DNA from: a virus | Virus record (IMG/VR): IMGVR_UViG_3300027759_000199 | Location: 1 to 38,380 of that record | Reading direction: 5' to 3' (one strand) | Length of the DNA: 38,380 nt | In this document: piece by piece, positions 1,253 to 20,599 of the stretch | How positions within the stretch are numbered: the first letter of the stretch is position 1 | How the letters are laid out: every line of letters begins with the position of its first letter | Made by a program: the position numbers and the translations under genes | The notes under the pieces: generated by a model | The model's input: only the letters and a program-made list of their open reading frames with translations | Told to the model about the DNA's origin: nothing | Databases searched by the model: none

Positions 1253-3001
1253 GTGGGCGTTTTCAAGCGCGATGAACAAGGCGAATCTGCCGAGGTTGTT
1301 TCTACTCCCGTCACCCCTAAAGCAAAGCCACAGAAGCGCACTAATAAATCAAAACAAACAGGTCGCTCTCGTCAAGTAGTTTTAAGTCAGACACCAAAAG
1401 TAACTGGTGCAGCATCAGTATTTTTATCTCAGCCAAACTCAGCACAGGCTGCTAACTATTCAACACCACGAACACTTACTGCCGCAGCAGCCCAAGTAAA
1501 GATTAATGACAAGGGCGAGTTCGAACAGTTTAAGCATCGTCGCACTGCTGCATCGTCAGCATGGCAAGCAGAGGCTTGGGAATATTACGACGCAATTGGT
1601 GAAATCAAATATGCATTTAACTTAGTTGCATCTGTTGTATCTCGTATTCGTATTTACTCTGCCGTTATTGAGAATGCACATGAAACTCCAGTTTCAGTAA
1701 AGTCATCTACACAGATTGACCCAAGATTGGGAGCAGCAGCAGAACGTGCACTTGCTCGTCTTGATTCTGCATATGGTGGACAGGCTGGTCTTCTTAAAGA
1801 TGCAGCACTTAATCTTTCAGTTGCTGGTGAATGTTACTTAGTTCAAATGCCAGAGCGTCCAGGTTCAGGATTACCTGAGTCTTGGGATATTCGTTCCGTT
1901 GATGAAGTTATGGCAGATGCTCGTGGTGGATTTAATATCATTGGTCGCCGTGAGCAATCTTCTGGCGGACAGAATCAGAACAACGCAACAAATCGTCTTT
2001 CAAAGAATGCATTTGTAGGACGCATCTGGCGCTCACACCCACGCTACTCAGACGAAGCAGATTCATCACTTCGCGGTTTGCTTGATATGTGTGCAGAACT
2101 TTTACTTCTTAACCGCACATTCCGTGCAACAGCACGCTCTCGCCTAAATGCTGGCGCACTTTATCTTCCAGATGGTTTATCAGTTGCTGCACAGGGCGAC
2201 CCAGACCAGCCATACGATTCAGATAATGAATTGAATCCAAACTTTACTGCCGAGGAGGCAGAGGATGAGTTTGAAGAGCAATTAATTGATGCTATGACGA
2301 CTCCAATTCGTGATGAAGAGTCAGCATCAGCAGTTGTTCCACTTATTATTCGTGGTCCAGCAGAACTTGGCGACAAGATTAAGCAATTTAAGTTCGAGCG
2401 TTCATTTGACCCATCACTTGCAGAGCGTTCAGACCGTGTTCTAGAAAGAATCCTTCAAGGACTAGACGTTCCAAAGGATGTTGTAACAGGACTTGCAAAC
2501 GTTAAGTATTCAAACGCACTTCAGATTGATGAAGCACTGTATAAGGCACACATTGAGCCAATGATGTTGCTCATCTGCGATGCTCTTACAGTTGTTTATC
2601 TTCGCCCATACCTTATTGCACAGGGATATAGCGTCACCGATGTTGAGAAGATTGTTATTTGGTATGACCCATCAGCAGTTGCAACACGCAATGACCGTGC
2701 AGCAGATGCAGATAGTGGTCTAGACCGTAATGCAATCTCACTTGATGCATGGCGTCGTGCTCACGGTTTCTCAGCAGCAGATGCACCTACTTCAAATGAA
2801 ATGGCGCTTCGTCTTTTGTCTGAGCGTGGAGCAATTACACCTGAACTTACTGAGGCAATGCTTCAAGCACTTGCTCCAGAGATTATGGATGCTGTTAAGC
2901 AAGCACAACAGGCGGCATCAGTTGCACCTATCCCGACAGATATCCAACAAATTCTTGACCAAGCAACTGGTGAACAAGCACCAGCACCAGAAGGAGAATA
3001 A
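1253..3001 (+). CDS. portal protein
   Basis: This 582-residue protein is the likely portal, the dodecameric ring at one capsid vertex through which DNA enters and leaves and to which the terminase and head-tail adaptor bind. Length and pattern match siphovirus portals: a basic disordered N-terminus (1-90), the EAWEYYDAIGEIKYAFNLVAS segment (around 107-127), a hydrophobic central region, and the stem-like region near residues 400-450 with GLDVPKDVVTGL and YSNALQIDEALYKAHIEP. The Gln/Ala-rich C-terminus is probably flexible. The start is GTG at 1253 with GAGGAG six bases upstream; no ATG fits better. The neighbouring head genes support the call. No terminase gene is visible, so it presumably lies upstream of the window. 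Confidence 0.92.
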   Translation: MGVFKRDEQGESAEVVSTPVTPKAKPQKRTNKSKQTGRSRQVVLSQTPKVTGAASVFLSQPNSAQAANYSTPRTLTAAAAQVKINDKGEFEQFKHRRTAASSAWQAEAWEYYDAIGEIKYAFNLVASVVSRIRIYSAVIENAHETPVSVKSSTQIDPRLGAAAERALARLDSAYGGQAGLLKDAALNLSVAGECYLVQMPERPGSGLPESWDIRSVDEVMADARGGFNIIGRREQSSGGQNQNNATNRLSKNAFVGRIWRSHPRYSDEADSSLRGLLDMCAELLLLNRTFRATARSRLNAGALYLPDGLSVAAQGDPDQPYDSDNELNPNFTAEEAEDEFEEQLIDAMTTPIRDEESASAVVPLIIRGPAELGDKIKQFKFERSFDPSLAERSDRVLERILQGLDVPKDVVTGLANVKYSNALQIDEALYKAHIEPMMLLICDALTVVYLRPYLIAQGYSVTDVEKIVIWYDPSAVATRNDRAADADSGLDRNAISLDAWRRAHGFSAADAPTSNEMALRLLSERGAITPELTEAMLQALAPEIMDAVKQAQQAASVAPIPTDIQQILDQATGEQAPAPEGE

Positions 3002-3003
3002 CA

Positions 3004-3477
3004 ATGAACGTAGAGAAGCCAGAAGTAGTAAATAGTCTTGCTAATTCACTTAGCAATGCCGTTGTAATGTATTTCAAGGCTCACGGGCATCACTGGAATG
3101 TTGTTGGTAATGACTTCTCACAGTTCCATGACTTCTTTGCATCAATCTACGAAGATGTTTATGGCTCTCTAGACCCAATTGCAGAAAGTATTCGTAAGAT
3201 GGGCGCTGTTGCTCCATATCGTCTTGTTGAGTTTGCTCGTATGTCTGATATTCAGGATACAGAGGTTGGCCAGAACGCTATGGCAATGTGCAAAGACCTT
3301 TACGATGCTAACGACACAATGCTTACTTCTTTAAATAACGCTTTTGCTGCTGCAAATGATTCTAACGAACAAGGAATTGCAAACCTACTTGCAGAGCGTA
3401 TTGATATGCACCAAAAGTGGCGCTGGCAGTTAAATGCATACCTCACAGCAGAAGATTCAGTAGGACAAGGATTCTAA
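3004..3477 (+). CDS. Dps-like ferritin family protein
   Basis: This 157-residue protein has the length and four-helix pattern of Dps proteins, which bind iron, oxidise it with peroxide at a dimer-interface site and can coat DNA. The signature is HHWNVVGNDFSQFHDFF. By comparison with E. coli Dps (H51, H63, D67, D78, E82), the visible equivalents are H30, H42, D57 and E61. The D67 position is Ala46, with Asp43 nearby, so ferroxidase activity may be weakened or rearranged. The gene starts two bases after the portal stop and is followed one base later by the next gene, so it belongs to the structural operon. It could protect packaged or incoming DNA from Fenton damage, or be a virion component. 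The family call is firm; the phage role is inferred. Confidence 0.88.
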   Translation: MNVEKPEVVNSLANSLSNAVVMYFKAHGHHWNVVGNDFSQFHDFFASIYEDVYGSLDPIAESIRKMGAVAPYRLVEFARMSDIQDTEVGQNAMAMCKDLYDANDTMLTSLNNAFAAANDSNEQGIANLLAERIDMHQKWRWQLNAYLTAEDSVGQGF

Positions 3478-3478
3478 A

Positions 3479-4300
3479 ATGGCACAAAAATGGATTGATG
3501 ATATAGATAACGCAGTAATTACTGCTGCCTCTAACAACGGTCCTTGCTGGGACGGCTATAAGCAAGTTGGAATGAAAGAAAAAGATGGAAAAATGGTTCC
3601 TAACTGCGTTCCTGTTGATGCTTCAGATAATTCAGAGTTTGCTAGTAAAAAAACTATTTCTCAAACATCTGCACCAAAGAAAGACCAGATTAAGGGCTCA
3701 GATAAAAATGAAAAGGGCTCTGCATCTGGTTCTAAGAAAGTTGTATTTAGTAAAGCAACAGAAGCATCTTTGGCAGAAAAAGTTAAGACTCACAATGCAA
3801 AAGCACCTGAAGGCCGCAAAGCAACACTTGGAATGCTTAAGGCTGTATATCGCCGTGGTGCAGGAGCATTTTCTGTATCGCATCGCCCAGGTATGAACCG
3901 TAATCAGTGGGCTATGGGCCGCGTCAATGCATTTCTTAAACTATTAAAGTCTGGCAAGCCATCAAACTCTGCATACAAGACAGATAATGATTTGCTTCCA
4001 GCAGCCCATCCAAAGAGTTCACGAGGTGTAAAGGCTTCTGCTTTGGATTCAGATTACGAAGAAGAATTGTTAGTTACACTAGGAACAAGAGAAGATTATC
4101 AATATCCAGAAGAAGCAATCATTGCTATGGCTGAGTTTTCTGGTTATGGGTATGAAGCAGAGAGCGCCATTCGCGCATCTTGGCTTCGTGCAGTGCGTAA
4201 TGGAGATGACCCATTTATGCGAGCAGGGATGCTTGCATCTTTTGGACAAGACAGTCTTGATGGAAATTTACTTCCAATCCTTGAGGAGGACGGCGAATAA
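3479..4300 (+). CDS. probable virion-associated protein with CWDGYKQVGMK motif
   Basis: This is a 273-residue protein with recognisable phage modules. Residues about 21-45 carry NGPCWDGYKQVGMKEKDGK followed by MVPNC, a motif I know from head-region proteins of several environmental phages. After a basic Lys/Ser-rich linker (50-100), residues about 103-175 carry a small helical module (THNAKAPEGRKATLGMLKAV, then YRRGAGAFS and RNQWAMGRVNAFL), which recurs in actinophage head-region and protease polyproteins. It ends with DLLPAAHPKS, a tag also found near the N-terminus of the next gene's product. The C-terminal region is acidic. Its TAA overlaps the next ATG (TAATG). It probably acts in capsid assembly or as an internal head protein; the exact role is unknown. 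Confidence 0.72.
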   Translation: MAQKWIDDIDNAVITAASNNGPCWDGYKQVGMKEKDGKMVPNCVPVDASDNSEFASKKTISQTSAPKKDQIKGSDKNEKGSASGSKKVVFSKATEASLAEKVKTHNAKAPEGRKATLGMLKAVYRRGAGAFSVSHRPGMNRNQWAMGRVNAFLKLLKSGKPSNSAYKTDNDLLPAAHPKSSRGVKASALDSDYEEELLVTLGTREDYQYPEEAIIAMAEFSGYGYEAESAIRASWLRAVRNGDDPFMRAGMLASFGQDSLDGNLLPILEEDGE

Positions 4301-7300
4301 TGAGTAGAGTAGTGCGTCGCTTTGGTTATGCCATCTCTCCTAATGGAGCACAGGCCAGCACCTTCAAACAGGCTGCCTATTTGCGTGAGAAGGTTATTGA
4401 GTTTATTGACTCAACTAATGCTGAAGCATCTACATCTCGTCGCCTAACTCGTGGTGCTGCGTTTGCAGTTGTCCACCGCTCACTTGTTGCAACAAAAGAT
4501 TTACCATTCTCAATCCGCGAGCACATCGCAATGAAGGACCTTTCACAATATGTGACACTTCTTCAAAACAATAAAGTCGCTGCGATTAAGCCAAGCCATA
4601 CTGACCTTCTCCCTGTAGCGCACCCACGCTCAACAAAGATGAACACACTTACAGCATCTGCTCTTATTTCAGCACGAGCAAACTGGTATGCCGATGATTC
4701 ACGCATCACTAACGAAAAAGTAAAGTCAATTGTTGCCTCTGCATATACAGCAACTCCTGGTTCTGTAGAACACTCTTATTACTCAGCAGTTCTTGCATCT
4801 CTTCCACAGGGCTCAGTTCCACAAGACATTCTTGTATCTCTTACTGCTGATGGAAACTCTTCAGCAGAACGTTCTCTTCGTGCTCGCTTACAGCGTCGTG
4901 ACCGCTTCGGTCAGTTTGCTTTTATGGGTGGCGGTATGCGTGCTCTTATTCGTATGGCTAAAGATGGACAAGTTCGTAGCCTTACAGGTCGTCCTATTGC
5001 AGATGGTCCTGATGGTGATGATGTTCAAGTAGAACTTCCAGATGGTCGTATTGCAAATATCCCTGCATCTAAGGGTGAGTTTATCTCTGCAATTATCAAT
5101 CCTACAAAGGACGGTTTCTCGCCAGTTCCTGCAAAAGTTTCTTCAGAAGACAATGATGTAATTATCAATGAAGCAGATTTAAAGTTTGTTGATTCACCTG
5201 CTGGTTTCAAAAAAGTTGGTGAAAATAAGTGGCAAGGCATTGATGAAAAGAATGCTGGGATTGTTGTTAGAAAAGCCGAAGACGGCTCTTTAAATGTTGA
5301 ATTTGAGTTTATGAGTGGCTCATCGCAAGAGATTGGTAATTTTAGCGATTGGGAAGATGCATTTGATGGAATTAATGCTTGGGATGAAGAACTTGAGGAA
5401 AGTTCTAAAAAAACAGACGCCAAAAGAAAAAAAGAACGAGAAGAAGATGAGCGTCGTGTAAAACTTCCTAACCCTGATGAAAATATTCAAGTAGTAGAGT
5501 TAGATAAAGATGGAAAAGCAAAAGGCCCTGCTAGAGATGCGTTCCCTAAAAAGTTTGCTTTCAACTACCCTGAAGGCGCTTACAAGATTTCTAAAGACCC
5601 TGATGCAGACATTGAAGAGTCATACGAAGACCCAACAGTAATTGCACAGAATGCAGATGAGCGCGACCTTATTGCCGCTATGGAAGAAGGACTTCTTCCT
5701 AAGAAGGAAGGTCAGAACGCTACTGGCTACGGAAACATTGATACTTATGATGGAGAACAATTAGTTCCTGTTGAAAATCTTTACCTTGCACTTCAAGAAA
5801 TGGGCGGAGACCCAGAGTTAGAAGTTGCCCGCATTTACGACAAGCAACTTGGAACATCTGAAAACGAAGATAATCTTATTGCCTCACGCAAGCAAGAAAC
5901 TATCTCGGAGCCAACTCCTGAACTTGATAAAGCATTTATCCGTGAGACAAAAGAACTTGGCCCAGACATTGAGCCAGCAACAGAAGAACCTGCATTTGAT
6001 GCAGAAAAGTTTGATGCTGCTCCACTTCCTGTACTTCTAGAAGGTTTGTCAGAGAGCGAACTTGCTCGCTTTATGGAATCAGAGGACCACACTCCTTACC
6101 TTCCAAAGAATGAACAAGTTGAAATGCCTATTGGCTACGCATCCCTTAGCCCAGAACCATACGCTGCGTGGAAGAAAGTAACAGCAGAAAATCCAGACCC
6201 TAACCTTCCAGAAGGTTTTAGTGACAACCCTGTATTTATTGCACAGAACATTCCTACACCAGAACTAGAAAAAGAATTTACTCGCGCTCTTGAGCCAGGT
6301 AATGACATTCCAGGAACTGCAAAGATTTCACTTAAGACAGACTCTGGTGAAGAGTTTGTTGCAGATGTTCCAGGCGAAGCAGTTCGTGATGCATTGCAAC
6401 TACAAGGCGTAGATACAAACGCTCTTACTAAGAAAATTGCAGATGAAGGCTTTGAAGGACAGAAGCAAGAAGTTGTCGGTCAAGAACAGCCAATTGCAAA
6501 GATTGTCACACCAGAACAAGAAATTGAAGAGAACAAAAAAATTATTGCTGCTCATCGTAAGTGGCAGCGTGAGAGTTATACAAAGAAGCCCGCTGAGAAA
6601 GAGCCTCCACGAGGACCTGCCGACCCTCTTGACCCAGCATACGAAGGTATTTATGACATTGACCAAGTAATCAAAGATGGAACTGTAGTTCCAGAGTTTG
6701 AAGAACTAGTTCGTAAAAATCCTGAAGCATTTGCTCGCTTTTTTGCATGGGCAGATAGCGGAGACTTCTACACAGATATGCAGTCAAGCACTCAATCTGG
6801 AGATGAAAATATTCCTGGAGATTTTTATGATGCCGATGAAGCGCTATATCGCCGTGAGTATGACGGCTACCGATATGCTCCAAGCCCAGGTGACGCAATA
6901 AGCGTTGCTAAGAACCTCTTCTACAACCCTAATCACTATGAGTCATCATCTTCTAAGATGAATGCACCTGTAGATAAATTAGAGACTCTTAAAGATATTC
7001 TTCATGCACTAGAAAATCCTGATATGAGAAATGACGTATCTGATGAAGAGCGTGCAGTTGTTGAATCCATCTCGAAGACAATTGCAGATGAGATTGCAAC
7101 ACTTCAAACTGCACCTGCTGCACCTTCTGCACCTATTGCTGTAGAGACCCCTACTCCACCTAAGAATCCAAATATTAGTGAAGGATTTTTAGACTCTCTT
7201 CTAAGTGCTCTTCGTAAGGGTACAAGCATTAATGGTCAATCTTTCCCTAGAAGCATTATGACTCCAGAAGAGCGTGAGTTTTTTGATAGAGTTACAGATA

Positions 7301-10300
7301 TTGGTGTAAGTAATGCAGAAGGCATCAAACTTGTTGAGGACATGATGGCTCAGCAAGGCTCTACTCCAAAGACCCAGGAAGAGCAGCAATATCTTGATGA
7401 TGAAGATATGGCTCGTTTACAAAAGCAACTTGATGGTTTCTTAGATTCTGACTTTGAAGTCTCATCTGAACAAGAAATCCCAGATGGTATTGAGGCATCC
7501 CCTAAGTCTCCAAACTTAGAGCCAGATAACGTAACTGGTCCTTATCGCATTGTGTCTAAGGTTTCTGATTTACAGCCTGGTGATATTACTGCTGATGACC
7601 ACTTTGTAATTGAATCTGTTGGTGGACCTTTCCCAGGAGACCCAAGCAAGTTAGAGATTGCTGGTTACTATCCAGGACACGTTACACAAAATACAAAGAA
7701 GTGGAACGCTTCTACAGAAATGACTGTTATTCGTGGTGCACAGGCTCCTGAAAAGGGAGACTTGCCAGAACTTAGCAAGCCATTTGCAAAAGACTTTGGT
7801 AAGCCATATAAAAACAAAGATGGCAAATGGGCTATGTCTAAGCCAGAAGACCAAGCAAGACTTGATGCAGCGTGGGAAGAATACAACGCAAGAAAAGCAG
7901 AAGCGATTGCTCGTTTTGAAGACCCAACAAATAAAGACAATACAAAGGCTCCACATCAAGTTCGTGTTAAGGCTGCTGACCTACAACCAGGTGATGTTTC
8001 TGCTAAGCCAGAAAAGGGTCACTTTGTTATTGAGCGCACCTTTACAGACGAGACAACAAAGCCAGGATTTGTTAGCGTTGAAGGTTACTATCCAGGACAC
8101 GTTTCACAGCGTAAGGAATGGAAAGTCGGAACTGACATTGATGTAATTAGAAATGTTGAAGCACCTGCAAAGGGTGAACTTCCAGAAATTCATCAACCAT
8201 CTAAGACAAACGCTAAGGGAAACTGGGTTCCAGATAAAGACCCTGCTAAGCGTGCAGAGTATGAAAAAGAAATTGCTGATGTTGCATCTAAGTGGGAAGT
8301 TCCAAAAGAACTTCCAACTATTGAGCCATCCGCAACTGACTCTGATACAGCCGACGCTACTGCAACTAAAGCAACAGTTGTAAAGAAGCCAAAGTCTCCT
8401 CGCTCACCAACAATGCCAGCGTTCCAAGGCGAGTTTGCTGCTATTGCTCGTGAAGCAGGTGGCGATTGGGATAAGTTCCGTGAACTTATTAAAGACCGAG
8501 AAATTATTTTCTTTGATTATGAAACAACTGGCGTAGATGCTGCTGATGGCAATGAGCCATGGCAACTAGGCGCTGTAAAAGTTGTTAATGGAAAAATTGT
8601 TGACCGATTTAATGTATTTATGAATCCAGGTCGTTCTATTGAAGGAACCTATGCTTCAAGAGATACTGCTGGTAAGCCAAACGCTGTTAATGGCGATGGA
8701 GAAAAACTTACAGACGAGTTCTTAGCCTCTCAGCCTGACCAGAAGAGTGCACACGAGCAGTTCGCTGCTTGGGCTGGAGAGAATCCTCTTCTTGCTGCAC
8801 ACAACATGGTCTTTGATGATGAAGTTGCTCGTCGTATGGCAGATAAGCATGGCACACCATACTCACCTGCTGGTCTTTTAGATACACTGCCTATTGCGCG
8901 AGATGTTCTTAAAGATGATGCATCTGCACCTACTTATGTATACAACGGTGAAAAAGACAATAAACTTACAAGTCTTGCTGCACACTTTGGAATTGATTTA
9001 GAAAGAGCGCACTCTGCTGATTATGATTCTGAAGCAACTGCACAACTCTTTACTAAACTTGCTGACCAAGCAAGTAAGGAAAAGACTGGCGCAGATACAT
9101 TTGATGTAGATGCTCGTCAAGCCGATTGGGAAAATGCTCAAACAGAGTTCCAGACTGCTATGGCTGACTACGAACAAAAGATGGCTGACTTTGCTGCTGC
9201 TAAAGCATTCCAAGATGCACTTGCTGGAAAGAAAGTTGATTTAGATAAAGTTATTGATGATGCAAAGGGTGCTGCAAAGCCAAACCCAGATGGTCAGCAA
9301 GAATCTGAAAAGAGTGAGACATCTACAGAGCCAGCAGTTATTGACTTTGAGGGTGCTGGAACATATCCACAGGGCAAGATGAAGTTGATGCCTCGTGAGT
9401 GGGCAGTAGATGATGCAAATACAACACTACTTCCTCGTGAAGATATTCGTATGAAAGACCTTCTACCAGGTGACTTTATGGCATCTGCTAGCGGAGACCG
9501 TATGTATCAAGTTGTTGCAGTTCGCGCTGGTGAAGACTTTGGATTCCAAGCAGGACGAGTTCGTGCATATCGCGCTGACCTTGAAAACGGCGAGATTCAC
9601 ATGGTTGAATACTGGGCTCCAACAAAGATGGATGGCGTTCGTCGTCCTAAGAATCCAGATGACTTGCTTCTTCCAGAAGATACGACAGATTCTCCAATTA
9701 ATGACAGTGCCACTGACGGTGAGTCATCTAATCAATACGTTCCAGTTTCTACAGGAAGTGCAACTGTTAAGGTTGAGCCATCAGAAGATGGTAGATACAA
9801 GATGGTTGCTACATTCTTTGATGACAACGGGGATGTTGCATATCAGGTAGAAGACTCATATCGCACTCGTGAAGGCGCTGAGGCTGAAGGTAAGGCTCTT
9901 ATTCAAGACCATGTTCGTTCTACAGAGGCACAGAAAGCCAAGGAGCAAGGCGAAGAAGCCACTAAGCAAGAAGATACTCCTGTATCTCGTGGAACAGTTC
10001 CAGCCAACGCTGACAGTGCTCCTCAGCGTGTTGAAATCTCAGATTTGCCTGGTGGATTTACTGGAGACATTCAAATTACTCCATCATCTCCAGATAAAGA
10101 TAAGCCTGAATACACATCAGACTCTGCTCTTATAGATTCAGATGGAGATGTTATTGATGTCCAAAAGACAGTTCACACCTCTCGCTCAGAAGCAGAATCA
10201 AGTGGACGCGAGTTCATTAGTCGTTCAGCAGATGCATATTCTTCAGCAGAAGTTCCTGAAGATTTAGGAAAGAAGTCTTCTAAACCACGCAAGGTTAGTC

Positions 10301-12207
10301 CAGAGCGTCAAGCAGAGTTGGATGCAATTCGTATCAGTAACGATGCTATTCTTGATTCTACAGGTTTGCTCCCTAATACAGATGCAAAAGACCTACAGGT
10401 TGGTGACTTTATTAAGCACAATGTTAATAAAGTTTATGAAGAAATTGTTGAGATTTATCAACATCCAACTGAAAAAGGTAAGTTGCTATTCCGCGTTCGT
10501 GACCCACGAGACGGAAACATTTACGAGCGTAAATTTGACAAAGGCTCTGACATCACAAACCCACGTCGTCCTGGCATTGAAGACCAGACAACAGAGGAAG
10601 CAAACAAGAGAGCAGCCGCGCCAGAAGATGCTGAAAAGAGCAAGAGAAAAGGCCGTGGTTATGGAAAGAGAAGTTCTCGCTACAGTGACCGCGTAATTGT
10701 TGATGCTGCTGTAAAACTTAATCCACAGGCTCGTGCCAATGCTGGTCGTTATGAAGACCGTATGGGTAATCAATTAAAGCCAGCAGATGAAGTTGGATTT
10801 GCAGAGGCTACACGAGTAGTTCACGTTTCTCAGAACTTCCGTGACAAGGTTGGAAACCAGGTTGGAACAGTTATTAACTTCTCTGGCGACCAAAAGCATG
10901 GTGGAGATGTTCGTGATGGTGTTGTATATCTAGACTTTATCTTTGTTCAATTCCCACCTTCAGAAGAGCATCCAAATGGAGTTATTCGTAAGTGGCAAGC
11001 AAACAACGTATTCCCTGTTGGCCCTAATGGAGAGATTCCAAAGGCATTTGAAGGACCTAGAAATCAAAGACCTCCTAAATTAGAATACGAAGAGTCAACC
11101 GAAACTCCTTCTTCATCTGAAGGAACTCGTTTAAACCAGGCTACACCTTCTGAAGAAGATTTGCCAGAGCAAAAAGAAGTCGTAAAGAAAACTAAGTTCT
11201 CTGACGACGACAAGAAAGCATGGAAAGAAAAGAAAGTTGAAGATATAAAGCAACAACTTCTTGATGACATATTTGCTGATATTGAAAATGGCGTTCTTCC
11301 TTGGGAAGCAAAGTGGAAAGCAATGCTTGGCAGCCTTCCATTTAATCCTTTAACAAAGAAGCAATATAACGGCATTAACTTATTCATCTTGGCATATGCT
11401 CAAGACCGCGGTGGCTTCTCAAGCAATCGCTGGTTAGGTAAGAAGCAAGCCTCCGAAATGGGAGGAGTGTTGAAGGATGGCGCTAAGCCAACTGACATTC
11501 TTCTTTATCAGCCAGGTGGGCCAGTATTTAAAAAAGATGCTGCTGGAAAAGATACTACTGAAGTTGCATACTTTAGAAAATCATCTTCTTCATTCCTACA
11601 GGTTTACAACGTAGACCAGTTTGATAATTTAATTCTTCCTGAAATTCCAGAACTAGTTCCAGTTCCTATGTCAGAGGCAGAAGCAGAAATTCTTAAACTC
11701 TACAAGGACCATCCTGAAATTGAGTTTGTCTCGATGGCACCTGGAAGCGCTCCTCATTACAACTGGGAGTCTGATGGAATTACTATGCCTGAGCGTGGTC
11801 AGTATGGAGAAGACCAAGCAGGATATATTAAGACACTTCTTCACGAACTTTCACACAGTTCAGGTCATAAAGACCGCTTAGACCGTTCAGATTTATTTGA
11901 CAGAATTAAAACTGAAACATCTATGGGCAATCCTTCTGGTCCAAATAGAGCAACAGAAGAACTTATGGCAGAAATTGCTGCTGCAATGATTGGTGCTAAA
12001 CTCGGTCTTGACCTTGACACAAAGCACACTGCTGCATATGTTCAATCATGGCTAAAGGCCCTAAGAAATGATAGAGAAATGATTTTCAAGGCTGCTGGCG
12101 GTGCTAGTCAGATTCTTGAATACATTCTTGAAGGCAAGAAACCAGGTTCTGGCGTAGGTAAATACGGCAAAACTGGTAAAGAAATCGCTGACGAGAACAA
12201 GGAATAG
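4300..12207 (+). CDS. giant polyvalent protein: DnaQ-like exonuclease plus ArdC-like antirestriction metallopeptidase
   Basis: The gene encodes 2635 residues from an ATG preceded by GAGGAGG. Domains seen in order: an N-terminal region with DLLPVAHPRS (about 104-113); an RDRFGQF segment and small beta region (196-264); a long acidic linker with repeated PTPELxKxFxR motifs (about 538-675); two DLQPGD modules (about 1082-1160 and 1222-1305); a DEDDh exonuclease (about 1400-1585) with D1406/E1408 in FDYETTG, D1506 in HNMVFD, and H1571/D1576; two more DLxxGD modules (about 1717-1785 and 2028-2092); and an ArdC-like C-terminus (about 2305-2620) with HELSHSSGH (H2515, E2516, H2519) and the distal glutamates of EELMAE (2553-2558). 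ArdC proteins inhibit restriction in incoming DNA. Its place between portal and capsid genes suggests packaging in the head and injection, possibly after cleavage by the phage protease. Domain calls are strong; delivery is inferred. Confidence 0.85.
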   Translation: MSRVVRRFGYAISPNGAQASTFKQAAYLREKVIEFIDSTNAEASTSRRLTRGAAFAVVHRSLVATKDLPFSIREHIAMKDLSQYVTLLQNNKVAAIKPSHTDLLPVAHPRSTKMNTLTASALISARANWYADDSRITNEKVKSIVASAYTATPGSVEHSYYSAVLASLPQGSVPQDILVSLTADGNSSAERSLRARLQRRDRFGQFAFMGGGMRALIRMAKDGQVRSLTGRPIADGPDGDDVQVELPDGRIANIPASKGEFISAIINPTKDGFSPVPAKVSSEDNDVIINEADLKFVDSPAGFKKVGENKWQGIDEKNAGIVVRKAEDGSLNVEFEFMSGSSQEIGNFSDWEDAFDGINAWDEELEESSKKTDAKRKKEREEDERRVKLPNPDENIQVVELDKDGKAKGPARDAFPKKFAFNYPEGAYKISKDPDADIEESYEDPTVIAQNADERDLIAAMEEGLLPKKEGQNATGYGNIDTYDGEQLVPVENLYLALQEMGGDPELEVARIYDKQLGTSENEDNLIASRKQETISEPTPELDKAFIRETKELGPDIEPATEEPAFDAEKFDAAPLPVLLEGLSESELARFMESEDHTPYLPKNEQVEMPIGYASLSPEPYAAWKKVTAENPDPNLPEGFSDNPVFIAQNIPTPELEKEFTRALEPGNDIPGTAKISLKTDSGEEFVADVPGEAVRDALQLQGVDTNALTKKIADEGFEGQKQEVVGQEQPIAKIVTPEQEIEENKKIIAAHRKWQRESYTKKPAEKEPPRGPADPLDPAYEGIYDIDQVIKDGTVVPEFEELVRKNPEAFARFFAWADSGDFYTDMQSSTQSGDENIPGDFYDADEALYRREYDGYRYAPSPGDAISVAKNLFYNPNHYESSSSKMNAPVDKLETLKDILHALENPDMRNDVSDEERAVVESISKTIADEIATLQTAPAAPSAPIAVETPTPPKNPNISEGFLDSLLSALRKGTSINGQSFPRSIMTPEEREFFDRVTDIGVSNAEGIKLVEDMMAQQGSTPKTQEEQQYLDDEDMARLQKQLDGFLDSDFEVSSEQEIPDGIEASPKSPNLEPDNVTGPYRIVSKVSDLQPGDITADDHFVIESVGGPFPGDPSKLEIAGYYPGHVTQNTKKWNASTEMTVIRGAQAPEKGDLPELSKPFAKDFGKPYKNKDGKWAMSKPEDQARLDAAWEEYNARKAEAIARFEDPTNKDNTKAPHQVRVKAADLQPGDVSAKPEKGHFVIERTFTDETTKPGFVSVEGYYPGHVSQRKEWKVGTDIDVIRNVEAPAKGELPEIHQPSKTNAKGNWVPDKDPAKRAEYEKEIADVASKWEVPKELPTIEPSATDSDTADATATKATVVKKPKSPRSPTMPAFQGEFAAIAREAGGDWDKFRELIKDREIIFFDYETTGVDAADGNEPWQLGAVKVVNGKIVDRFNVFMNPGRSIEGTYASRDTAGKPNAVNGDGEKLTDEFLASQPDQKSAHEQFAAWAGENPLLAAHNMVFDDEVARRMADKHGTPYSPAGLLDTLPIARDVLKDDASAPTYVYNGEKDNKLTSLAAHFGIDLERAHSADYDSEATAQLFTKLADQASKEKTGADTFDVDARQADWENAQTEFQTAMADYEQKMADFAAAKAFQDALAGKKVDLDKVIDDAKGAAKPNPDGQQESEKSETSTEPAVIDFEGAGTYPQGKMKLMPREWAVDDANTTLLPREDIRMKDLLPGDFMASASGDRMYQVVAVRAGEDFGFQAGRVRAYRADLENGEIHMVEYWAPTKMDGVRRPKNPDDLLLPEDTTDSPINDSATDGESSNQYVPVSTGSATVKVEPSEDGRYKMVATFFDDNGDVAYQVEDSYRTREGAEAEGKALIQDHVRSTEAQKAKEQGEEATKQEDTPVSRGTVPANADSAPQRVEISDLPGGFTGDIQITPSSPDKDKPEYTSDSALIDSDGDVIDVQKTVHTSRSEAESSGREFISRSADAYSSAEVPEDLGKKSSKPRKVSPERQAELDAIRISNDAILDSTGLLPNTDAKDLQVGDFIKHNVNKVYEEIVEIYQHPTEKGKLLFRVRDPRDGNIYERKFDKGSDITNPRRPGIEDQTTEEANKRAAAPEDAEKSKRKGRGYGKRSSRYSDRVIVDAAVKLNPQARANAGRYEDRMGNQLKPADEVGFAEATRVVHVSQNFRDKVGNQVGTVINFSGDQKHGGDVRDGVVYLDFIFVQFPPSEEHPNGVIRKWQANNVFPVGPNGEIPKAFEGPRNQRPPKLEYEESTETPSSSEGTRLNQATPSEEDLPEQKEVVKKTKFSDDDKKAWKEKKVEDIKQQLLDDIFADIENGVLPWEAKWKAMLGSLPFNPLTKKQYNGINLFILAYAQDRGGFSSNRWLGKKQASEMGGVLKDGAKPTDILLYQPGGPVFKKDAAGKDTTEVAYFRKSSSSFLQVYNVDQFDNLILPEIPELVPVPMSEAEAEILKLYKDHPEIEFVSMAPGSAPHYNWESDGITMPERGQYGEDQAGYIKTLLHELSHSSGHKDRLDRSDLFDRIKTETSMGNPSGPNRATEELMAEIAAAMIGAKLGLDLDTKHTAAYVQSWLKALRNDREMIFKAAGGASQILEYILEGKKPGSGVGKYGKTGKEIADENKE
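7543..8213 (+). repeat. tandem DLQPGD modules inside the giant protein gene
   Basis: Two copies of an approximately 80-residue module sit back to back, separated by a charged linker. Both share DLQPGD, then HFVIE, then GYYPGHV, a predicted strand ending in TxxxVIR, and an APxKGxLPE tail. Copy 1 spans roughly 7543-7780 and copy 2 roughly 7963-8213. More distant relatives with the same DLxxGD opening occur at about 9448-9655 (DLLPGD) and 10381-10575 (DLQVGD). The protein-level match is clear and the DNA has diverged, so the duplication is old. Confidence 0.8.
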
Positions 12208-12686: not shown

Positions 12687-15600
12687 ATGAAGTTCGTAGG
12701 TCGCAAAGGCGATGAAGTTCTATTTGTAATTGATAACACGGCTGTTTTTGTTAACGAAAAACAGAATCTTGTATCTAACATAAGCACTGCTTCTACAGTG
12801 CTGGCTTCATTCGTTCCAGAAGGGCACCAAGATAAGCCTGACTCAGTGCCTTACGAACTAGCATTATCTGCAACAACAGATTTAGATATTAAAGTCTTCT
12901 CAAGCAATGACCGTATGTATACGATTCCAGATGCTGTTAAGGCTGAAGCACAGCGTGCTTTAGATTGGCATAAAGAACATCACCGCGGTGGCACACCAGT
13001 TGGTATGAATACTGCTCGCACTCTTGCTAAGGGTGGACAGATTGGCATTAAAAAGATTCGTCATATTGCAAAATATTTCCCACGCCACGAAGTGGATAAG
13101 AAAGGCACTGGTTACAAGCCAGGTCAGAAGTCTTATCCATCTAATGGTCGTATTGCCTGGGCTCTTTGGGGCGGGGATGCCGCAAAACGCTGGGCATCAG
13201 CAATTGTTGAACGTGAAAACAAAAAAGCGCAATCAAACTCTATTACTGCTTCATACCGATACATCATGTCCGAGCAGAATGACCCTACAGCAGTAGAATT
13301 AAATGCTTTTGAACTTGCTCGCACTTTACCAGCAGAACTTGCTCCAGAATTTTTTATTCGTATTCGTTTAGATGGTACAGGTATTGACCGTCTTTATAAG
13401 TGTGAACCAACAGGAGAAGTTGCTGTTTGGGATGACGGAATGTGGGAAGACCTTGGAAACCTTAACCATGACTTCCTCACATACGACAAATCATTAGATG
13501 ACGCTTCAGATGTTGTAGAAAAGATGCACGTTCCTGTAGATATTGAATCTGCTATTGCAATCTCTGGAATGTTTGATGTTGACCCATATAAGTATGTTGG
13601 TGTCACTCAAGTAAATCCTGAAGAGTCAGGGCTTGTATCAGAAGCAGTAGATGATATTGACTGGGAAGAAATTTATCGTCTATCTATGGGCGATGACCCA
13701 GAGTATGAAGAGGCTATGTTTGCTGTTGGCGCACCAGTTGCTGCTCCTACACAAGGGGATGCACCTACTGGAGATATTCAAAAAGGCGATGGAAAATATA
13801 CCCCAGCAGAACGCTCACAGAACGCTAGCGGACAGGTTCGCAACAAACTAGGTATGTTTGCTAAGGCTGGTTCACAAGTTGTTATTGGTGGAAAGTCTAA
13901 ATACACAGGCAAGATTGTTGGAATGAATGCTGATACTCAGACTGTCAGAGTTGAATTAGATAATGGCGTAACTGTTGATGTTCCAGGAAACCTTACTCAA
14001 GAAGCCGAAGGATTTGTAGAAGCACCAGAAGCATCTGCTCCAACTCCAGAGCAAGCAAAAGCATTAACTCGTAATATTCTTGGCGAAACAAAACCTCCTG
14101 CCGATAAAGCAGGTGCTCGTCTTCCAGAGCGTATGTCTTCTATGACACCTCAGCAAACATCTACCGTTGTTGCTGACTACCCTAATTTTGTTGGTGGAGA
14201 GCGTGCTGCAAGTCTTAAAGCGGGGACTCAGGCTCCAGCAACTCCTCCTGCACCACTTACTGCAAAAAATGCTTATCAGACACCTAATGCTTATAACAAT
14301 CCATTGCTAAGAAACTTTCTTGAAAAGAAAGTTGTTTCTCCTACAGGTGAAGTAAGTTATCCAAACGCTATCTGGTATCGCCCTGACCTTGCTGGTATTA
14401 ATCCAAATTCAGTTGAGGCATATAAAGATAAGACATCTAGTGTTGGCAATTTTATTAAAAACAAAGAAGCAATGCCTTCTATGACTAGTCCTGCATATCA
14501 GCAACCAGCAAAAGGTTTTTCTAAGCCAACTGCTCAGCCTGCCGCTCCAGCAAAGACTGTATCTACAAGTAAGACACTTCCTAATGGAGTAGTTCAAACT
14601 GGTACACCACAGGCTCCAATTTATACAGCAATGATTAACGGAAATCCTGTTGAAACAGATAAAGAAGGAACCCCTATCAAGGGTGTCTATGTAGAAATTC
14701 CTAAAGAAGGATATAAGTATGCTGGTGCTGTAGTTAAACCAGGAGAGTCTTATGGTGCTCTTAGAGATACTGGTGAACTTGGAACTTCTAAAGAAAAATA
14801 TGACAAAAATTATGACGGAATTAGAGAGTATAAGGCTGCTGATGGAACTGTCTACTATGGACGTAAAGGTGTTGTAGTTCCTGCTGGCAAGATGATGACT
14901 TCTTCTGGAACTATTGTTGATAAGCCAAAGACTGCTTCAGCAATTATTGCATCTGGAGAAAACGTTGAACTTACTCCAGATACTTCTGATGTTCCACCTG
15001 TCTATATGGCTATTGTTGCACCAGATGATGCACAGGCTGTAATGGACCTTATTGCTCTTGTTCCAAAAAATTCTCAATCAGAAGTTCCTACAACTTTTAA
15101 GCGTAAAGAAAGTAAATGGGTTAAGGATGAAGCAATTCTTAATGACCTAAACAGCCCTACACCACCACCAGTTGTTGTTTTAGATAACCCAACTTTGGCA
15201 GATGTTTTGGGACAGATTGATGGTCCAGAAGCAGCAACTGCTTCAGCAATTGTTTCAATGATGGCTGCGGGCGGTATTGATAAGAACCGTGGTAATGCAG
15301 AAGACCTTCGTGACTATTGGCTACACGGAAAAGGTGCAGCAAAGATTCGTTGGAATACTCCAGGAGACTGGACACGCTGCGTTCGTCAACTTTCTAAATA
15401 CATGGGTCCTCGTGCTAAAGGCTATTGTGCTCTTCGTCATCACGAAGCAACAGGTATGTGGACTGGCGATAAAGAACATCGTCAAATTGATAAAGTCACT
15501 GCAAGTGGAAAACGCTTGTATAGCAATGACTTTATCATTTCAAAGGATTCAGTTATTGCATCTGCCGAATGGCGTGCACAGCAGACAGAGTCTGCTCCTA

Positions 15601-18359: not shown

Positions 18360-18424
18360 GTTCTATAAAAATCGTACAAAACCAAAAATCACACTAATAA
18401 AACTAATGTAATATTCAGTACTAG
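18360..18424 (+). promoter_or_regulatory. A/T-rich non-coding spacer with possible promoter
   Basis: This is the first clear gap in the operon. It is very A/T-rich and contains TAATAT at 18409-18414, which could serve as a -10 box for capsid transcription. No convincing -35 hexamer lies 16-18 bases upstream. A dedicated promoter here would make sense because capsid protein is needed in large amounts, but the call is tentative. Confidence 0.3.
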
Positions 18425-18526
18425 GTGGAGTGCCTCCACGCATTTATTGCGTATTGGAGTCCCTCGGCCTCGACTGACAGCGAGACAGGAATTATTAGCC
18501 TGTCGTGACTGGCCCAGAGGAGGGAC
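18425..18526 (+). promoter_or_regulatory. structured RNA leader predicted to sequester the capsid gene ribosome binding site
   Basis: Three stacked foldbacks precede the capsid start. Hairpin 1 is GTGGAG/CTCCAC (18425-18430 with 18434-18439). Hairpin 2 is ACGCA/TGCGT (18438-18442 with 18448-18452). Element 3 pairs GTCCCTC (18459-18465) with GAGGGAC (18520-18526), continues with GGCC/GGCC (18466-18469 with 18511-18514), and closes on an inner GACAGG/CCTGTC stem (18484-18489 with 18499-18504). The Shine-Dalgarno core GGAGG (18519-18523), six bases before the ATG, lies largely in the outer stem. The pairings are directly visible; a regulatory role is inferred. Hairpins 1 and 2 share two bases, so they may alternate. 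Confidence 0.6.
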
Positions 18527-18529
18527 AGT

Positions 18530-20599
18530 ATGGACCAAATCAAAACAATGATGGACCAACTCTCAGACCTCGATGACTCACAAGTCAGCGAACTACAGAG
18601 TTCAATCATCAAAGAGTTTGAAACGGTTGAGAAAGAAGAACCTTCTCTTGCAACAGTTGACGCGATGACGTCGCTTGCCGATATGCTTGACGGAGTTAGA
18701 AACGAAGTCATGCGCCGCGAAACTGCGGCCAAAGAACTCGCACAGCGAGCAGCCGAGGCCGCTAACCGCGTACACGGACAAGATGGCGAAGCAGCGGATA
18801 AGTCAATGGATGAAGAAAATCCTGATGCCGCACCAGCAGATGCAGAAGCACCTGCTGCTCCAGTAGAAGAAATGCCTAAAGAAGAAGTTGCTGCTGCACC
18901 AATGGAAGAAGAAGCACCTGTTGCTGATGCTCCTGTTGTTGAAGAAGGAACTCCCGAAGAAGAAGCAAAAGAAACTCCTGCTGAAGAAGACACGGAGAAA
19001 AAGGACAAGAAGGAATATTCCATGACCGAATCATCATCAACTAATGCAGAGAAGAACTTAGAGTTCTCGACTGAAAACGCAGAAGCAGCGCCCGTTGCTG
19101 AAGCAACCACTGAAGTAGCAGCAGAAGTTGCCGCTCCAGTAGCAGAAGAAGCACCAGCAGCAGAAGCAACAGCAGAGGAAGCAGCAGCATCAGATGATGC
19201 AGCAGCAGACGCAGCAGTTGCAGACGCAGTTGATGGTTCAGAAGCATCAACCAAATCAGAAGCAAGTGAACCAACTTTGGTTCAAGAAACTATGGAGGCA
19301 CCTGTGACCGCCGCTGCCGAAAATGCAGACAACCTCAACATTGAGGTCCCGGCTGACCGTCGTCTTATCTCCCAGTCTTCTGCCGCACCTGTGGCAATCA
19401 CAGCGGGCGCAGATATTCCTGGATATACAGCCGGCAGCCCAATGAACGACATGAGCGCTGTTGCGGAAGCAATGTCAAAGCGCCTACACGGCCTACGTCG
19501 TGTAAACGGTGGAGATGGAGAGCAGCACATTGTTGCATCTGTCACTACTTCATTCCCAGAATCACGCACCCTTACTCAGGATGCTGAATCTAACTGGGCA
19601 AAAATCCAGGCTGTAACTGGCCCAGAAGCACTTGTTGCTTCAGGTGGTCACGCAGCACCATACACAATCAAGTACGACATCTTTGGTCTTGGTACCACTG
19701 CACGTCCAGTACGCGATTCACTTCCAACATTCCAGGCTGACCGTGGCGGTATCCGCTTCGTAACACCACCAGTTCTTTCATCATATGGAGACGCTGTAGG
19801 AATCTGGACAAACGCTAAGGATATTACTCCTGGCACAGACACCAAGACATCACTTACTGTTTCTGCTGCACAGGAAAACACTGTTGCAACAGATGCTGTA
19901 ACTTTACAGTTGCAGTTTGGTAACTTGATGACTCGTGCTTACCCAGAACTAATCGCTCGTCACAACGAGTTGGGTCTTATCCAGCACGCTCGTGAAGCAG
20001 AGCAGAACCTTCTTTCAAAGATTGGTACTGCTTCAACAGCAGTTACAACTACAAGCCTTATCGGCTTTGGTCGTGACTTCCTCGTCCAGATTGGCCGCGC
20101 TGCTGCTGCTTACCGTTCACGTCACCGTCTAGAGACTGATGCACCACTTCGTGCAATCATCCCTGGCTGGGTTCTTGACGCAATGCAAGCAGACCTTACT
20201 CTCAATATGCCTGGTGACAGCAGTCTTGCTGTTGCTCAGTCAGAAATCAATGGCTACGTTAAGGCTCGCGGAGTTAACCTAACTACCGCTCTTGACGCAA
20301 CAGTCTTTGGTGCACAGAGCACAGGCGCACTTGTCGAGTTCGCAGATTCATTCACATGGTACCTATTCGCAGAAGGTTCATTCTTGTTCCTTGATGGCGG
20401 TACTCTTGACCTCGGAATCATCCGCGATTCATCTCTAGTCGGAACTAACGACTACAAGATGTTCGTTGAAACATTCGAAAACATCGCATTTGTTGGTGTC
20501 GAGTCTCTCGCCATTACATCTACCATCTCTGTTAACGGTGTGGCTGCTGCCCTCCGCGACACAACTGGTGGAGCAACTGCTGCGGCTGTTGAGTACTAA
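18530..20599 (+). CDS. major capsid protein with fused N-terminal scaffold-like domain
   Basis: The 689-residue product has two parts. Residues 1 to about 258 are helical and then very acidic, Ala/Glu/Pro-rich low complexity, like a scaffold or delta domain. From about 259 on it reads as an HK97-fold capsid protein of the actinophage type, with TARPVRDSLPTFQADRGG (about 399-416), GIWTNAKDITPG, the helical RHNELGLIQHAREAEQNLL region and a C-terminal FEDSFTW-like (here FADSFTWYLFAEG) segment. Capsid subunits form the icosahedral shell, and the upstream S78-like protease probably removes the scaffold part. The start at 18530 has GGAGG six bases upstream. Two in-frame internal starts with good ribosome binding sites (19022 and 19304) could give shorter products of 525 and 431 residues. 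Confidence 0.9.
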   Translation: MDQIKTMMDQLSDLDDSQVSELQSSIIKEFETVEKEEPSLATVDAMTSLADMLDGVRNEVMRRETAAKELAQRAAEAANRVHGQDGEAADKSMDEENPDAAPADAEAPAAPVEEMPKEEVAAAPMEEEAPVADAPVVEEGTPEEEAKETPAEEDTEKKDKKEYSMTESSSTNAEKNLEFSTENAEAAPVAEATTEVAAEVAAPVAEEAPAAEATAEEAAASDDAAADAAVADAVDGSEASTKSEASEPTLVQETMEAPVTAAAENADNLNIEVPADRRLISQSSAAPVAITAGADIPGYTAGSPMNDMSAVAEAMSKRLHGLRRVNGGDGEQHIVASVTTSFPESRTLTQDAESNWAKIQAVTGPEALVASGGHAAPYTIKYDIFGLGTTARPVRDSLPTFQADRGGIRFVTPPVLSSYGDAVGIWTNAKDITPGTDTKTSLTVSAAQENTVATDAVTLQLQFGNLMTRAYPELIARHNELGLIQHAREAEQNLLSKIGTASTAVTTTSLIGFGRDFLVQIGRAAAAYRSRHRLETDAPLRAIIPGWVLDAMQADLTLNMPGDSSLAVAQSEINGYVKARGVNLTTALDATVFGAQSTGALVEFADSFTWYLFAEGSFLFLDGGTLDLGIIRDSSLVGTNDYKMFVETFENIAFVGVESLAITSTISVNGVAAALRDTTGGATAAAVEY
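19011..19024 (+). promoter_or_regulatory. candidate internal ribosome binding site and ATG within the scaffold-capsid gene
   Basis: AAGGA lies about eight bases before an in-frame ATG at 19022-19024 (residue 165, start of MTESSSTNAE). Initiation here would give a 525-residue product lacking the first part of the scaffold. The sequence is visible; use in the cell is not shown. Confidence 0.4.
19075..19260 (+). repeat. Ala/Glu low-complexity tract (GCA/GAA-rich) in the scaffold domain
   Basis: The DNA is dominated by GCA, GCT and GAA/GAG codons and encodes an almost uninterrupted Ala/Glu/Asp stretch. The pattern is imperfect and does not form an exact tandem unit. It explains the long open frames seen in other frames and on the opposite strand here. 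Confidence 0.7.
19294..19306 (+). promoter_or_regulatory. candidate internal ribosome binding site and GTG at the scaffold-capsid boundary
   Basis: A perfect GGAGG (19294-19298) sits five bases before an in-frame GTG at 19304-19306 (residue 259, VTAAAENADN). This is where the low-complexity scaffold part ends and the capsid fold begins. Initiation here would make a 431-residue capsid protein without scaffold, a size usual for free HK97-type capsid subunits. Confidence 0.45.

What the first reader, a model, noticed from the sequence alone, without database searches (positions are those of the whole stretch)
4300..12207. Giant polyvalent protein joining a DnaQ-like exonuclease to an ArdC-like antirestriction metallopeptidase inside the head gene cluster
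One uninterrupted 2635-codon gene between portal and capsid genes carries a complete DEDDh exonuclease motif set (D1406, E1408, D1506, H1571, D1576) and, 900 residues later, an ArdC-like N-terminal domain with an HExxH metallopeptidase. Polyvalent proteins with ArdC domains are known from phages and conjugative elements as co-delivered counter-defence factors, but a DnaQ domain in the same chain, embedded among four repeated DLxxGD modules, seems unusual. Inference: the protein is packaged and injected, perhaps after processing by the neighbouring S78-like protease, so the exonuclease and antirestriction parts act at the start of infection.
Basis: partly seen in the sequence, partly recalled or inferred. 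Interest (0 to 1): 0.86.

Follow-up and report, generated by a model that had tools for sequence, protein, structure and literature searches.

The report
Giant phage head-cargo protein with exonuclease
A bacterial virus carries a giant protein whose constant front end looks like a loading tag for the virus head and whose interchangeable rear here holds a DNA-trimming enzyme plus an anti-defence protein, probably injected with the viral DNA to help it survive on entry.

Summary
One 2635-codon ORF (4300-12207) carries an intact DEDDh (DnaQ/PolC-type) exonuclease at residues 1403-1584 and a complete ArdC (2315-2599), with four DLxxGD modules, between portal and protease/capsid genes. Related contigs change the reading. 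The first ~260 residues are a constant cassette: M1 (ends in [ILVM]TA[SAG] in 58 of 70 segments) and M2 (RRDRxGxFA plus a small beta-barrel). In 79 of 79 loci with the cassette a portal gene lies 0.9-1.6 kb upstream; what follows it varies: DnaQ, DnaQ+UvrD, DnaQ+ArdC, DnaQ+UvrD+ArdC, or kinase/sigma-like domains. DnaQ in such giants is therefore recurrent (17 of 34 complete frames); DnaQ with ArdC is a minority. In another phage lineage a prohead protease is fused to UvrD-DnaQ-ArdC in one 4740-residue frame. The TA motif is also invariant in 16 of 16 capsid proteins where the variable acidic N-terminus meets the core, so the head protease may remove only an N-terminal ~120-residue pro-region, as in phage P1 DarA, leaving exonuclease and ArdC joined. 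Best reading: a new variant of phage-type polyvalent protein, packaged and injected; packaging, cutting and injection are inferred, not shown.

The parts
1253..3001 (+). portal protein, 582 aa
   Evidence: phrog_776 portal E 3.8e-108; Pfam Phage_portal only 17.6 bits, under cut-off
3004..3477 (+). small head-cluster gene between portal and the DUF5824 gene; homologues in the same slot in several relatives, in some (L052, L053) in one frame with the DUF5824 gene
   Evidence: phrog_3636 'DNA binding protein' E 6.8e-24
3479..4300 (+). DUF5824 gene with a second copy of module M1 (DNDLLPxAHPxS...ASA) and a CWxGYxQxGxKxxxGKxVPNCVP motif
   Evidence: Pfam DUF5824 E 2.3e-7; M1 profile hit
4300..12207 (+). 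giant polyvalent protein, 2635 aa
4513..4686 (+). module M1 (residues 72-129): helix, loop HTDLLPVAHPRSTK, then LTASAL at the start of a helix
   Evidence: profile hits in giants and in the paralogous upstream genes; model, mean pLDDT 71.7
4648..4662 (+). LTASA (residues 117-121), candidate prohead-protease site
   Evidence: motif in 58 of 70 distinct giant M1 segments; cleavage is inference
4849..5076 (+). module M2 (residues 184-259): RRDRFGQFAFMGG helix plus small beta-barrel
   Evidence: helix 188-208 and strands from 212 on in the model; weak SH3/Tudor-like Foldseek matches, none at E <= 0.001
7540..7776 (+). DLxxGD module 1 (residues 1081-1159), predicted beta module
7951..8193 (+). DLxxGD module 2 (residues 1218-1298), also found before DnaQ in L031 and L019
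8506..9051 (+). DEDDh 3'-5' exonuclease (DnaQ/PolC-type), residues 1403-1584; catalytic D1406 E1408 D1506 H1571 D1576
   Evidence: (5 residues conserved in 10 of 10 domains aligned)
9433..9684 (+). DLxxGD module 3 (residues 1712-1795)
10375..10587 (+). DLxxGD module 4 (residues 2026-2096)
   Evidence: Pfam Phage_tudor only at E 0.2
11242..11553 (+). ArdC N-terminal ssDNA-binding-type domain (residues 2315-2418)
   Evidence: Pfam ArdcN E 1.2e-19
11743..12096 (+). ArdC zincin domain (residues 2482-2599), HELSH at 2515
   Evidence: Pfam MPTase-PolyVal E 2.1e-27
12687..18359 (+). 1890-aa head protein: N-terminal part with its own M2-like module, then prohead-protease-like part and long C-terminal part
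   Evidence: phrog_18402 head maturation protease E 3.5e-55 and phrog_3244 E 3.5e-6, though the best PHROG, phrog_859 (E 4.2e-92), is named 'portal protein'; Pfam Peptidase_S78 only E 0.064, under cut-off; M2 profile hit; parts are separate genes annotated capsid maturation protease in DSL-LC01
18530..20599 (+). major capsid protein with about 290-residue acidic N-terminal region and conserved VTAA and ITAG sites at its end
   Evidence: phrog_777 E 6.2e-79, its match starts at residue 180; boundary judged from alignments

Best explanation
The gene encodes a phage-type polyvalent protein: cargo loaded into the phage head and ejected with the DNA. Its first ~260 residues are a constant loading cassette. 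M1 behaves like a propeptide that joins the procapsid and is cut off by the prohead protease at its terminal [LM]TA|S-type site, the cut also predicted for the capsid protein; M2 stays on the mature protein. The rest is interchangeable payload. Here the payload is a PolC/epsilon-like DEDDh 3'-5' exonuclease set among four small beta modules, and a complete ArdC. After entry, ArdC would shield incoming phage DNA from type I restriction, as R388 ArdC does in conjugation (by DNA binding, its authors propose), and the exonuclease would trim 3' ends or single strands at the entering genome or destroy ssDNA/RNA used by a host defence. Exonuclease and ArdC most likely work as one tethered chain. Shown here: domains, conserved active sites, purifying selection, constant cassette with variable payload, gene order. 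Inferred: packaging, cleavage, ejection, substrates.
For: Domains and residues. dN/dS of DnaQ 0.17 against L006 and 0.09 against L014; ArdcN is only 51% identical to L006 with dS 1.68 while residues 2016-2290 before it are 95% identical with dS 0.15, which suggests a swap for a divergent allele. Constant cassette: 79 of 80 loci have a frame with M1+M2 (L017, cut short, has not), 79 of 79 with a portal frame 885-1616 bases upstream on the same strand; of 34 frames complete at the 3' end, 17 have no DnaQ, 15 DnaQ, 2 DnaQ+ArdC. DSL-LC01 keeps slot and cassette with a payload without either domain. Motif [ILVM]TA[SAG]: 58 of 70 giant M1 segments, 56 of 71 paralogous M1 segments; ITAG in 16 of 16 capsid proteins; frames of the DSL-LC01 head region 11 seen against 1.43 expected for the five-letter form, tail 0 against 0.81. 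Prohead protease in one frame with UvrD-DnaQ-ArdC directly after a portal in G004. The 127-kb relative has its own polymerase with a 3'-5' exonuclease domain, and in the large records searched the only RNase_T frame is the giant. P1 DarA, a co-ejected antirestriction protein that loses an N-terminal ~9 kDa to the prohead protease, is a precedent (PMC12810830, passages).
Against: No virion proteomics, no cleavage data. The M1 motif may be a structural element and not a cut site; 12 of 70 giant M1 segments lack it, and the window's own upstream DUF5824 gene has KASA there. The four-letter form is also above shuffles outside the head genes: DSL-LC01 tail 5 against 1.68, other 16 against 8.57; in the window the genes at 32814 (3 against 0.43) and 35982 (2 against 0.15) have it too, both outside the head cluster. 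Related DnaQ giants also sit beside primase/helicase and ribonucleotide reductase genes (L050, L051), so the same domain can serve replication. 31 of 80 DnaQ loci show no portal or S78 frame in the fetched stretch. L014 has an in-frame TAA between DnaQ and ArdC. The window's own prohead-protease part scores only E 0.064 in Pfam.
Confidence: 0.7

Rival explanations
1. Replication or repair enzyme: the DnaQ part proofreads or processes DNA during phage replication, and the gene merely lies in the head cluster.
For: Related DnaQ domains sit in giants beside primase-helicase and ribonucleotide reductase genes (L050/G005) or primase-helicase (L051/G008); head-context L048 and replication-context L034 DnaQ are 64% identical; PHROG name 'DNA polymerase exonuclease subunit'.
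Against: The family A polymerase of the 127-kb relative has its own 3'-5' exonuclease domain (PF01612, 25.7 bits, cut-off 23.6, a narrow pass). Three relatives with the same cassette and no DnaQ in the giant (G015, G019, DSL-LC01) have no RNase_T match at all, though the two contigs may be incomplete. The cassette always has a portal close upstream (79 of 79).
Confidence: 0.12
2. Structural or assembly factor: an internal scaffold-like or DNA-organising head protein whose enzymatic domains are secondary, expressed late and perhaps not ejected.
For: Constant cassette, portal neighbour, M2 also in the protease protein; in P1, DarA and Hdf are both antirestriction and head-morphogenesis factors (PMC12810830, passages).
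Against: Catalytic residues kept in 10 of 10 DnaQ domains aligned and low dN/dS point to selected enzymatic activity; payload differences between relatives are not expected of a purely structural protein.
Confidence: 0.12
3. The head protease or the zincin domain cuts the chain into separate exonuclease and ArdC products.
For: Iyer et al. propose zincin-driven autoprocessing of polyvalent proteins (PMC5512222, section 8); the HExxH motif is intact here; in L014 an in-frame stop separates the two halves.
Against: The candidate head-protease motif is not enriched after M2 in 30 distinct complete giants (13 seen, 15.4 expected); this says nothing on cutting by the zincin. R388 ArdC does its antirestriction work without its protease activity (PMC7213743, passages).
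Confidence: 0.2
4. Annotation artefact: chance open frame, or domains decayed.
For: None found.
Against: E-values of 1e-17 to 1e-27 and solved-structure matches, full-length orthologues in L004 and L006, purifying selection.
Confidence: 0.01

Closest known systems
Phage-type polyvalent proteins (Iyer et al. 2017, PMC5512222; abstract, passages, sections 8 and 33 read)
   Same: Very large multidomain protein among head genes of a portal phage, combining MPTase and ArdC-N with other catalytic domains.
   Different: A DnaQ-type exonuclease: the words DnaQ and DEDD occur 0 times in the main text and 'exonuclease' once, in a reference title (supplements not seen). [quoted passage not shown] Whether the M1-M2 cassette is described there was not searched.
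Phage P1 DarA (PMC12810830, passages read)
   Same: Antirestriction protein in the head, co-ejected with DNA, N-terminal ~9 kDa removed by the prohead protease; the capsid protein's N-terminus acts as scaffold and is cut by the same protease.
   Different: No sequence relation was tested; DarA is 639 residues and the passages read mention no DnaQ or ArdC.
ArdC of plasmid R388 (PMC7213743, passages read; solved ArdC 6i89/6sna)
   Same: Both domains, match over nearly the full length at E 5e-31, HExxH kept.
   Different: There a plasmid protein of about 300 residues needed in the recipient cell; here the C-terminus of a phage giant.
PolC / DnaQ-epsilon exonucleases and S. aureus DinG
   Same: Fold and five catalytic residues; PolC 9qpc_A Z 20.5 (rmsd 2.8, 193 aligned), DinG 9ii8_A Z 19.5 (2.7, 186), epsilon 2gui Z 18.0 (2.2, 165); PolC by sequence.
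   Different: Those are parts of cellular polymerases or a helicase; here the domain is in a head-cluster giant. DnaQ followed by UvrD in relatives recalls the exonuclease-helicase pairing of DinG (that DinG is such a pairing is recalled).
Actinomycetia phage DSL-LC01 (OQ999401; PMC10611076, passages read)
   Same: Same gene order and N-terminal cassette, 3289-residue giant in the same slot.
   Different: No DnaQ or ArdC; annotated 'hypothetical protein'.

Membership tests
phage-type polyvalent protein | two or more domains of disparate biochemical activity in one chain | tested here: met
   RNase_T, ArdcN, MPTase-PolyVal in one frame
phage-type polyvalent protein | encoded among virion genes of a portal/terminase phage | tested here: met
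   portal and capsid genes on either side; portal frame 885-1616 bases upstream in 79 of 79 loci with the cassette
phage-type polyvalent protein | packaged in the virion and injected | not testable with these tools
   needs virion proteomics
ArdC antirestriction protein | ArdC-N ssDNA-binding domain followed by zincin domain with HExxH and glutamate helix | tested here: met
   HELSH and TEELMAE aligned with relatives
ArdC antirestriction protein | protects DNA from type I restriction | not testable with these tools
   needs plating on restricting and non-restricting hosts
DEDDh (DnaQ) exonuclease superfamily | D-E-D-H-D catalytic residues on an RNase H fold | tested here: met
   (10 of 10 domains aligned, window, L006 and L014 being close relatives)
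DEDDh (DnaQ) exonuclease superfamily | 3'-5' exonuclease activity | not testable with these tools
   needs an assay
P1 DarA | N-terminal propeptide cut by the prohead protease | tested here: inconclusive
   shared motif with the capsid protein; no cleavage data
P1 DarA | sequence homology to DarA | not tested
   DarA itself was not compared; Pfam and PHROG tables list no DarA family
polymerase proofreading subunit | acts with a polymerase lacking its own exonuclease | tested here: not met
   PolA of the 127-kb relative G001 has DNA_pol_A_exo1, 25.7 bits over cut-off 23.6; one phage tested

The most novel reading that the evidence does not exclude
M1-M2 is a general head-loading tag of a large, mostly uncultured phage group: a cleavable propeptide plus retained barrel that carries interchangeable, very large payloads (up to at least 6389 residues) into the capsid. 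A frequent payload is a portable DNA-entry kit, an exonuclease with or without a UvrD helicase and an ssDNA-binding ArdC, that works as one tethered machine on the first stretch of incoming DNA or on host nucleic-acid defences.
Probability: 0.4. Interest if true: 0.8.

Novelty: new variant of a known kind. Interest (0 to 1): 0.64.

Why it matters
If right, it gives a sequence rule for which proteins a whole group of phages loads into its heads, and thereby a way to list unknown injected effectors from DNA alone (anything behind M1-M2). It adds 3'-5' exonucleases, often with helicases, to the predicted injected arsenal, and makes the open question of how very large proteins are sorted into and out of phage heads testable with one predicted cut site.

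Tried and rejected
Only one named phage in the phage collection shares the N-terminal third (DSL-LC01; tblastn of residues 1-387 with E up to 5), so no cultured relative can be offered; DSL-LC01 itself is a metagenome assembly. The window's host was not tested; an actinobacterial host is predicted for DSL-LC01 only.

Fold search of the N-terminal model gave no match at E <= 0.001; the SH3/Tudor-like rows concern the M2 barrel and are weak, and no row gives a usable lead for the M1 helices.

Kinase part of the DSL-LC01 giant: suspected by eye from the letters; not confirmed by Pfam or by phmmer with the L023 kinase region. Left as a guess.

Salinibacter phage hits of the DUF5824 gene were looked at once; all 18 genes shown for that record are named 'hypothetical protein', and they were not followed.

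The bare motif TAS is not enriched in the DSL-LC01 head region (4 against 3.52); only the longer forms are. The motif was chosen after looking at the window, so DSL-LC01 and the capsid set are related, not independent, tests. One search used stop-to-stop frames of 120 codons or more and left out bases 120001-129469 of that genome. The second capsid TA site fits the four-letter motif in 14 of 16 and [ILVM]TA in 16 of 16.

Domain counts use profiles built here from window and locus sequences, not Pfam; a Pfam scan of 9 giants counted as lacking DnaQ found RNase_T in 0 of 9.

The idea that L014 shows a natural split between DnaQ and ArdC was not settled: the local alignment is poor around the stop, which may be a sequence error. 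This contig is counted as a complete DnaQ frame (L163).

What is in print: searches in the open-licence library. One search (ArdC, DnaQ, phage) listed 1 paper, seen as a listing only. One search (polyvalent protein, phage, exonuclease) listed 6; I opened passages of three (PMC5512222, PMC7824862, PMC11879866). So absence in print is not shown. A P1 paper asked for is not held and not used.

Full report
Observation. The frame 4300-12207 codes for 2635 residues without a stop. Pfam places RNase_T at 1403-1584, ArdcN at 2315-2418 and MPTase-PolyVal at 2482-2599, all well over the curated cut-offs; PHROGs agree. By sequence, the ArdC part matches solved ArdC over nearly its length (E 5e-31) and the DnaQ part matches PolC exonucleases. 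A predicted model of 1076-1610 (mean pLDDT 75.5, most ten-residue blocks of the DnaQ part at 85-96, some loops at 61-78) aligns with PolC 9qpc_A at Z 20.5 (rmsd 2.8, 193 aligned), S. aureus DinG 9ii8_A at 19.5 (2.7, 186) and E. coli epsilon 2gui at 18.0 (2.2, 165).

Intactness. The five catalytic residues are conserved in 10 of 10 DnaQ domains aligned; window, L006 and L014 among them are close relatives. Against L006 the DnaQ part has dN/dS 0.17 and against L014 0.09. The ArdC end behaves differently: ArdcN is 51% identical to L006 with dS 1.68, and the zincin part 69% with dS 0.60, while residues 2016-2290 just before are 95% identical with dS 0.15. I read that as a payload replaced by a divergent allele. 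Residues 771-1075, with no known domain, are as divergent (42%, dS 1.48).

The constant N-terminus. The only named relative, DSL-LC01, a lake metagenome phage with predicted actinobacterial host (PMC10611076, passages), has a 3289-residue protein in the same slot that shares residues ~28-358 and has no DnaQ or ArdC match. Iterated profiles resolve two modules: M1, residues 72-129, also present in the gene just upstream; and M2, residues 184-259, also present in the prohead-protease protein and, in some relatives, in further head-cluster genes. A scan with the N-terminus, blind to payload, kept the best 80 of 296 loci. 79 of the 80 carry a frame with M1 and M2 (L017 is cut short), and in 79 of 79 a portal frame lies 885-1616 bases upstream on the same strand. 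34 frames are complete at the 3' end: 17 without DnaQ, 15 with DnaQ, 2 with DnaQ and ArdC. These include near-identical contigs, one frame of only 805 residues (L196), and the L014 contig whose ArdC lies past an in-frame stop (L163).

Other payloads. Of 9 giants counted as lacking DnaQ, Pfam finds PI3/PI4-kinase in 3 (the best, L016, at 26.8 bits just under the cut-off of 27.1), sigma-70 region 4 in 2, and RNase_T in 0. An M2-bearing neighbour gene in L023 also has the kinase. Of 12 DnaQ giants chosen by me, all under 5000 residues, 12 match RNase_T, 4 UvrD, 3 PI3/PI4-kinase, 1 ArdC. L157, and L160 as far as its contig goes, have M1-M2-DnaQ-UvrD-ArdC in one frame. In these the longest DnaQ frame has 1000 residues or more in 72; 37 have M1+M2 in it, 2 the S78 protease, 10 a portal or S78 neighbour, and 31 show no portal or S78 frame in the stretch fetched, though five of the 31 (L115, L128, L137, L139, L146) have M1 or M2 in the frame or beside it. 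Of 20 ArdC loci, 13 are solo ArdC frames of 254-311 residues, 5 have DnaQ in the same frame (three of these being one contig type), 1 has UvrD without DnaQ (L064) and 1 is the split contig (L065).

A second lineage. In the 119-kb contig G004 a portal is followed by one 4740-residue frame that begins with a prohead protease (Peptidase_S78 E 2.7e-9; phrog_80 head maturation protease E 1.7e-25) and continues with sigma-70 region 4, KTSC, UvrD, DnaQ, ArdcN and MPTase. A protease expected to work inside the prohead, fused to the same payload, is the best indirect sign of head delivery. Its DnaQ is 64% identical to one that sits beside primase and reductase genes in G005, so the domain seems to have moved between replication and head loci.

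A candidate cut site. M1 ends in [ILVM]TA[SAG] in 58 of 70 distinct giant segments and 56 of 71 paralogous ones. ITAG is invariant in 16 of 16 capsid proteins, from window, DSL-LC01 and 14 further loci (L249 and L250 look the same), where mean column agreement rises from 0.60 before to 0.82 after it, and a second [ILVM]TA site lies within 45 residues before it in 16 of 16. In the DSL-LC01 head region the five-letter form occurs 11 times in 11 frames against 1.43 expected, 0 against 0.81 in tail frames, 6 against 3.87 elsewhere; the four-letter form is above shuffles in all three groups (12 against 2.52, 5 against 1.68, 16 against 8.57). In the window two genes outside the head cluster also have an excess. 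After M2 the giants show none (13 against 15.4). So, if this is the site, the head protease trims the N-terminus and leaves exonuclease and ArdC joined. P1 DarA loses an N-terminal ~9 kDa to its prohead protease and is ejected with the DNA (PMC12810830, passages).

Probably not a proofreader. The 127-kb relative G001 has a family A polymerase with its own 3'-5' exonuclease domain (25.7 bits, cut-off 23.6). In 8 records of 103-138 kb RNase_T is found in 5, each time in one frame, the DnaQ giant, and in none of the 3 others; records may be incomplete. G026 among the five is a portal-S78 contig whose DnaQ frame has no M1-M2.

Mechanism and judgement. I take delivery with the DNA as likely (about 0.75) and N-terminal trimming as fair (about 0.6); both are inferred. 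R388 ArdC does not need its protease for antirestriction, and its authors propose that it works by DNA binding (PMC7213743, passages). What the exonuclease attacks is open: UvrD after DnaQ in several relatives favours DNA ends of the incoming genome; host ssDNA or RNA defence substrates are possible. I file it as a new variant of phage-type polyvalent proteins. In Iyer et al. [quoted passage not shown] the literature searches showed me no description of DnaQ in such proteins, but I opened only some of the papers listed.

Noticed in passing
L014:15718-15720 (contig IMGVR_UViG_3300012000_000018): In-frame TAA between the DnaQ and ArdC halves of a close relative; local alignment is poor around it, so a real split or a sequence error.
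   Followed up: partly
L135:1526-20692: Frame of at least 6389 residues with M1, M2, DnaQ and UvrD, open at the end of the stretch; L098, L100, L101 and L110 exceed 5000 residues and are complete.
   Followed up: no
L128, L139, L146: Two giant frames in a row, each with its own DnaQ: the first (open at its start) with UvrD and ArdC, the second with M2.
   Followed up: no
window 3479-4300: Its CWxGYxQxGxKxxxGKxVPNCVP stretch matches several PHROG families of unknown function, and the gene has tblastn hits in 429 phage records at E up to 0.1, many of them cyanophages and Salinibacter phages; role unknown.
   Followed up: partly
window 12687-18359: One 1890-aa head protein here; its parts are separate genes in DSL-LC01. 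It holds five [ILV]TA[SAG] sites against 0.73 expected.
   Followed up: partly
window 18421-19254, - strand: 277-codon antisense frame over the capsid gene start; an antisense frame also lies over the DSL-LC01 capsid gene; probably composition.
   Followed up: no
window 24812-25554: Overlapping frames 24812-25165 and 25099-25554 just upstream of the 1036-residue frame at 25577, where DSL-LC01 has tail assembly chaperones before its tape measure gene; a programmed frameshift there was not tested.
   Followed up: no
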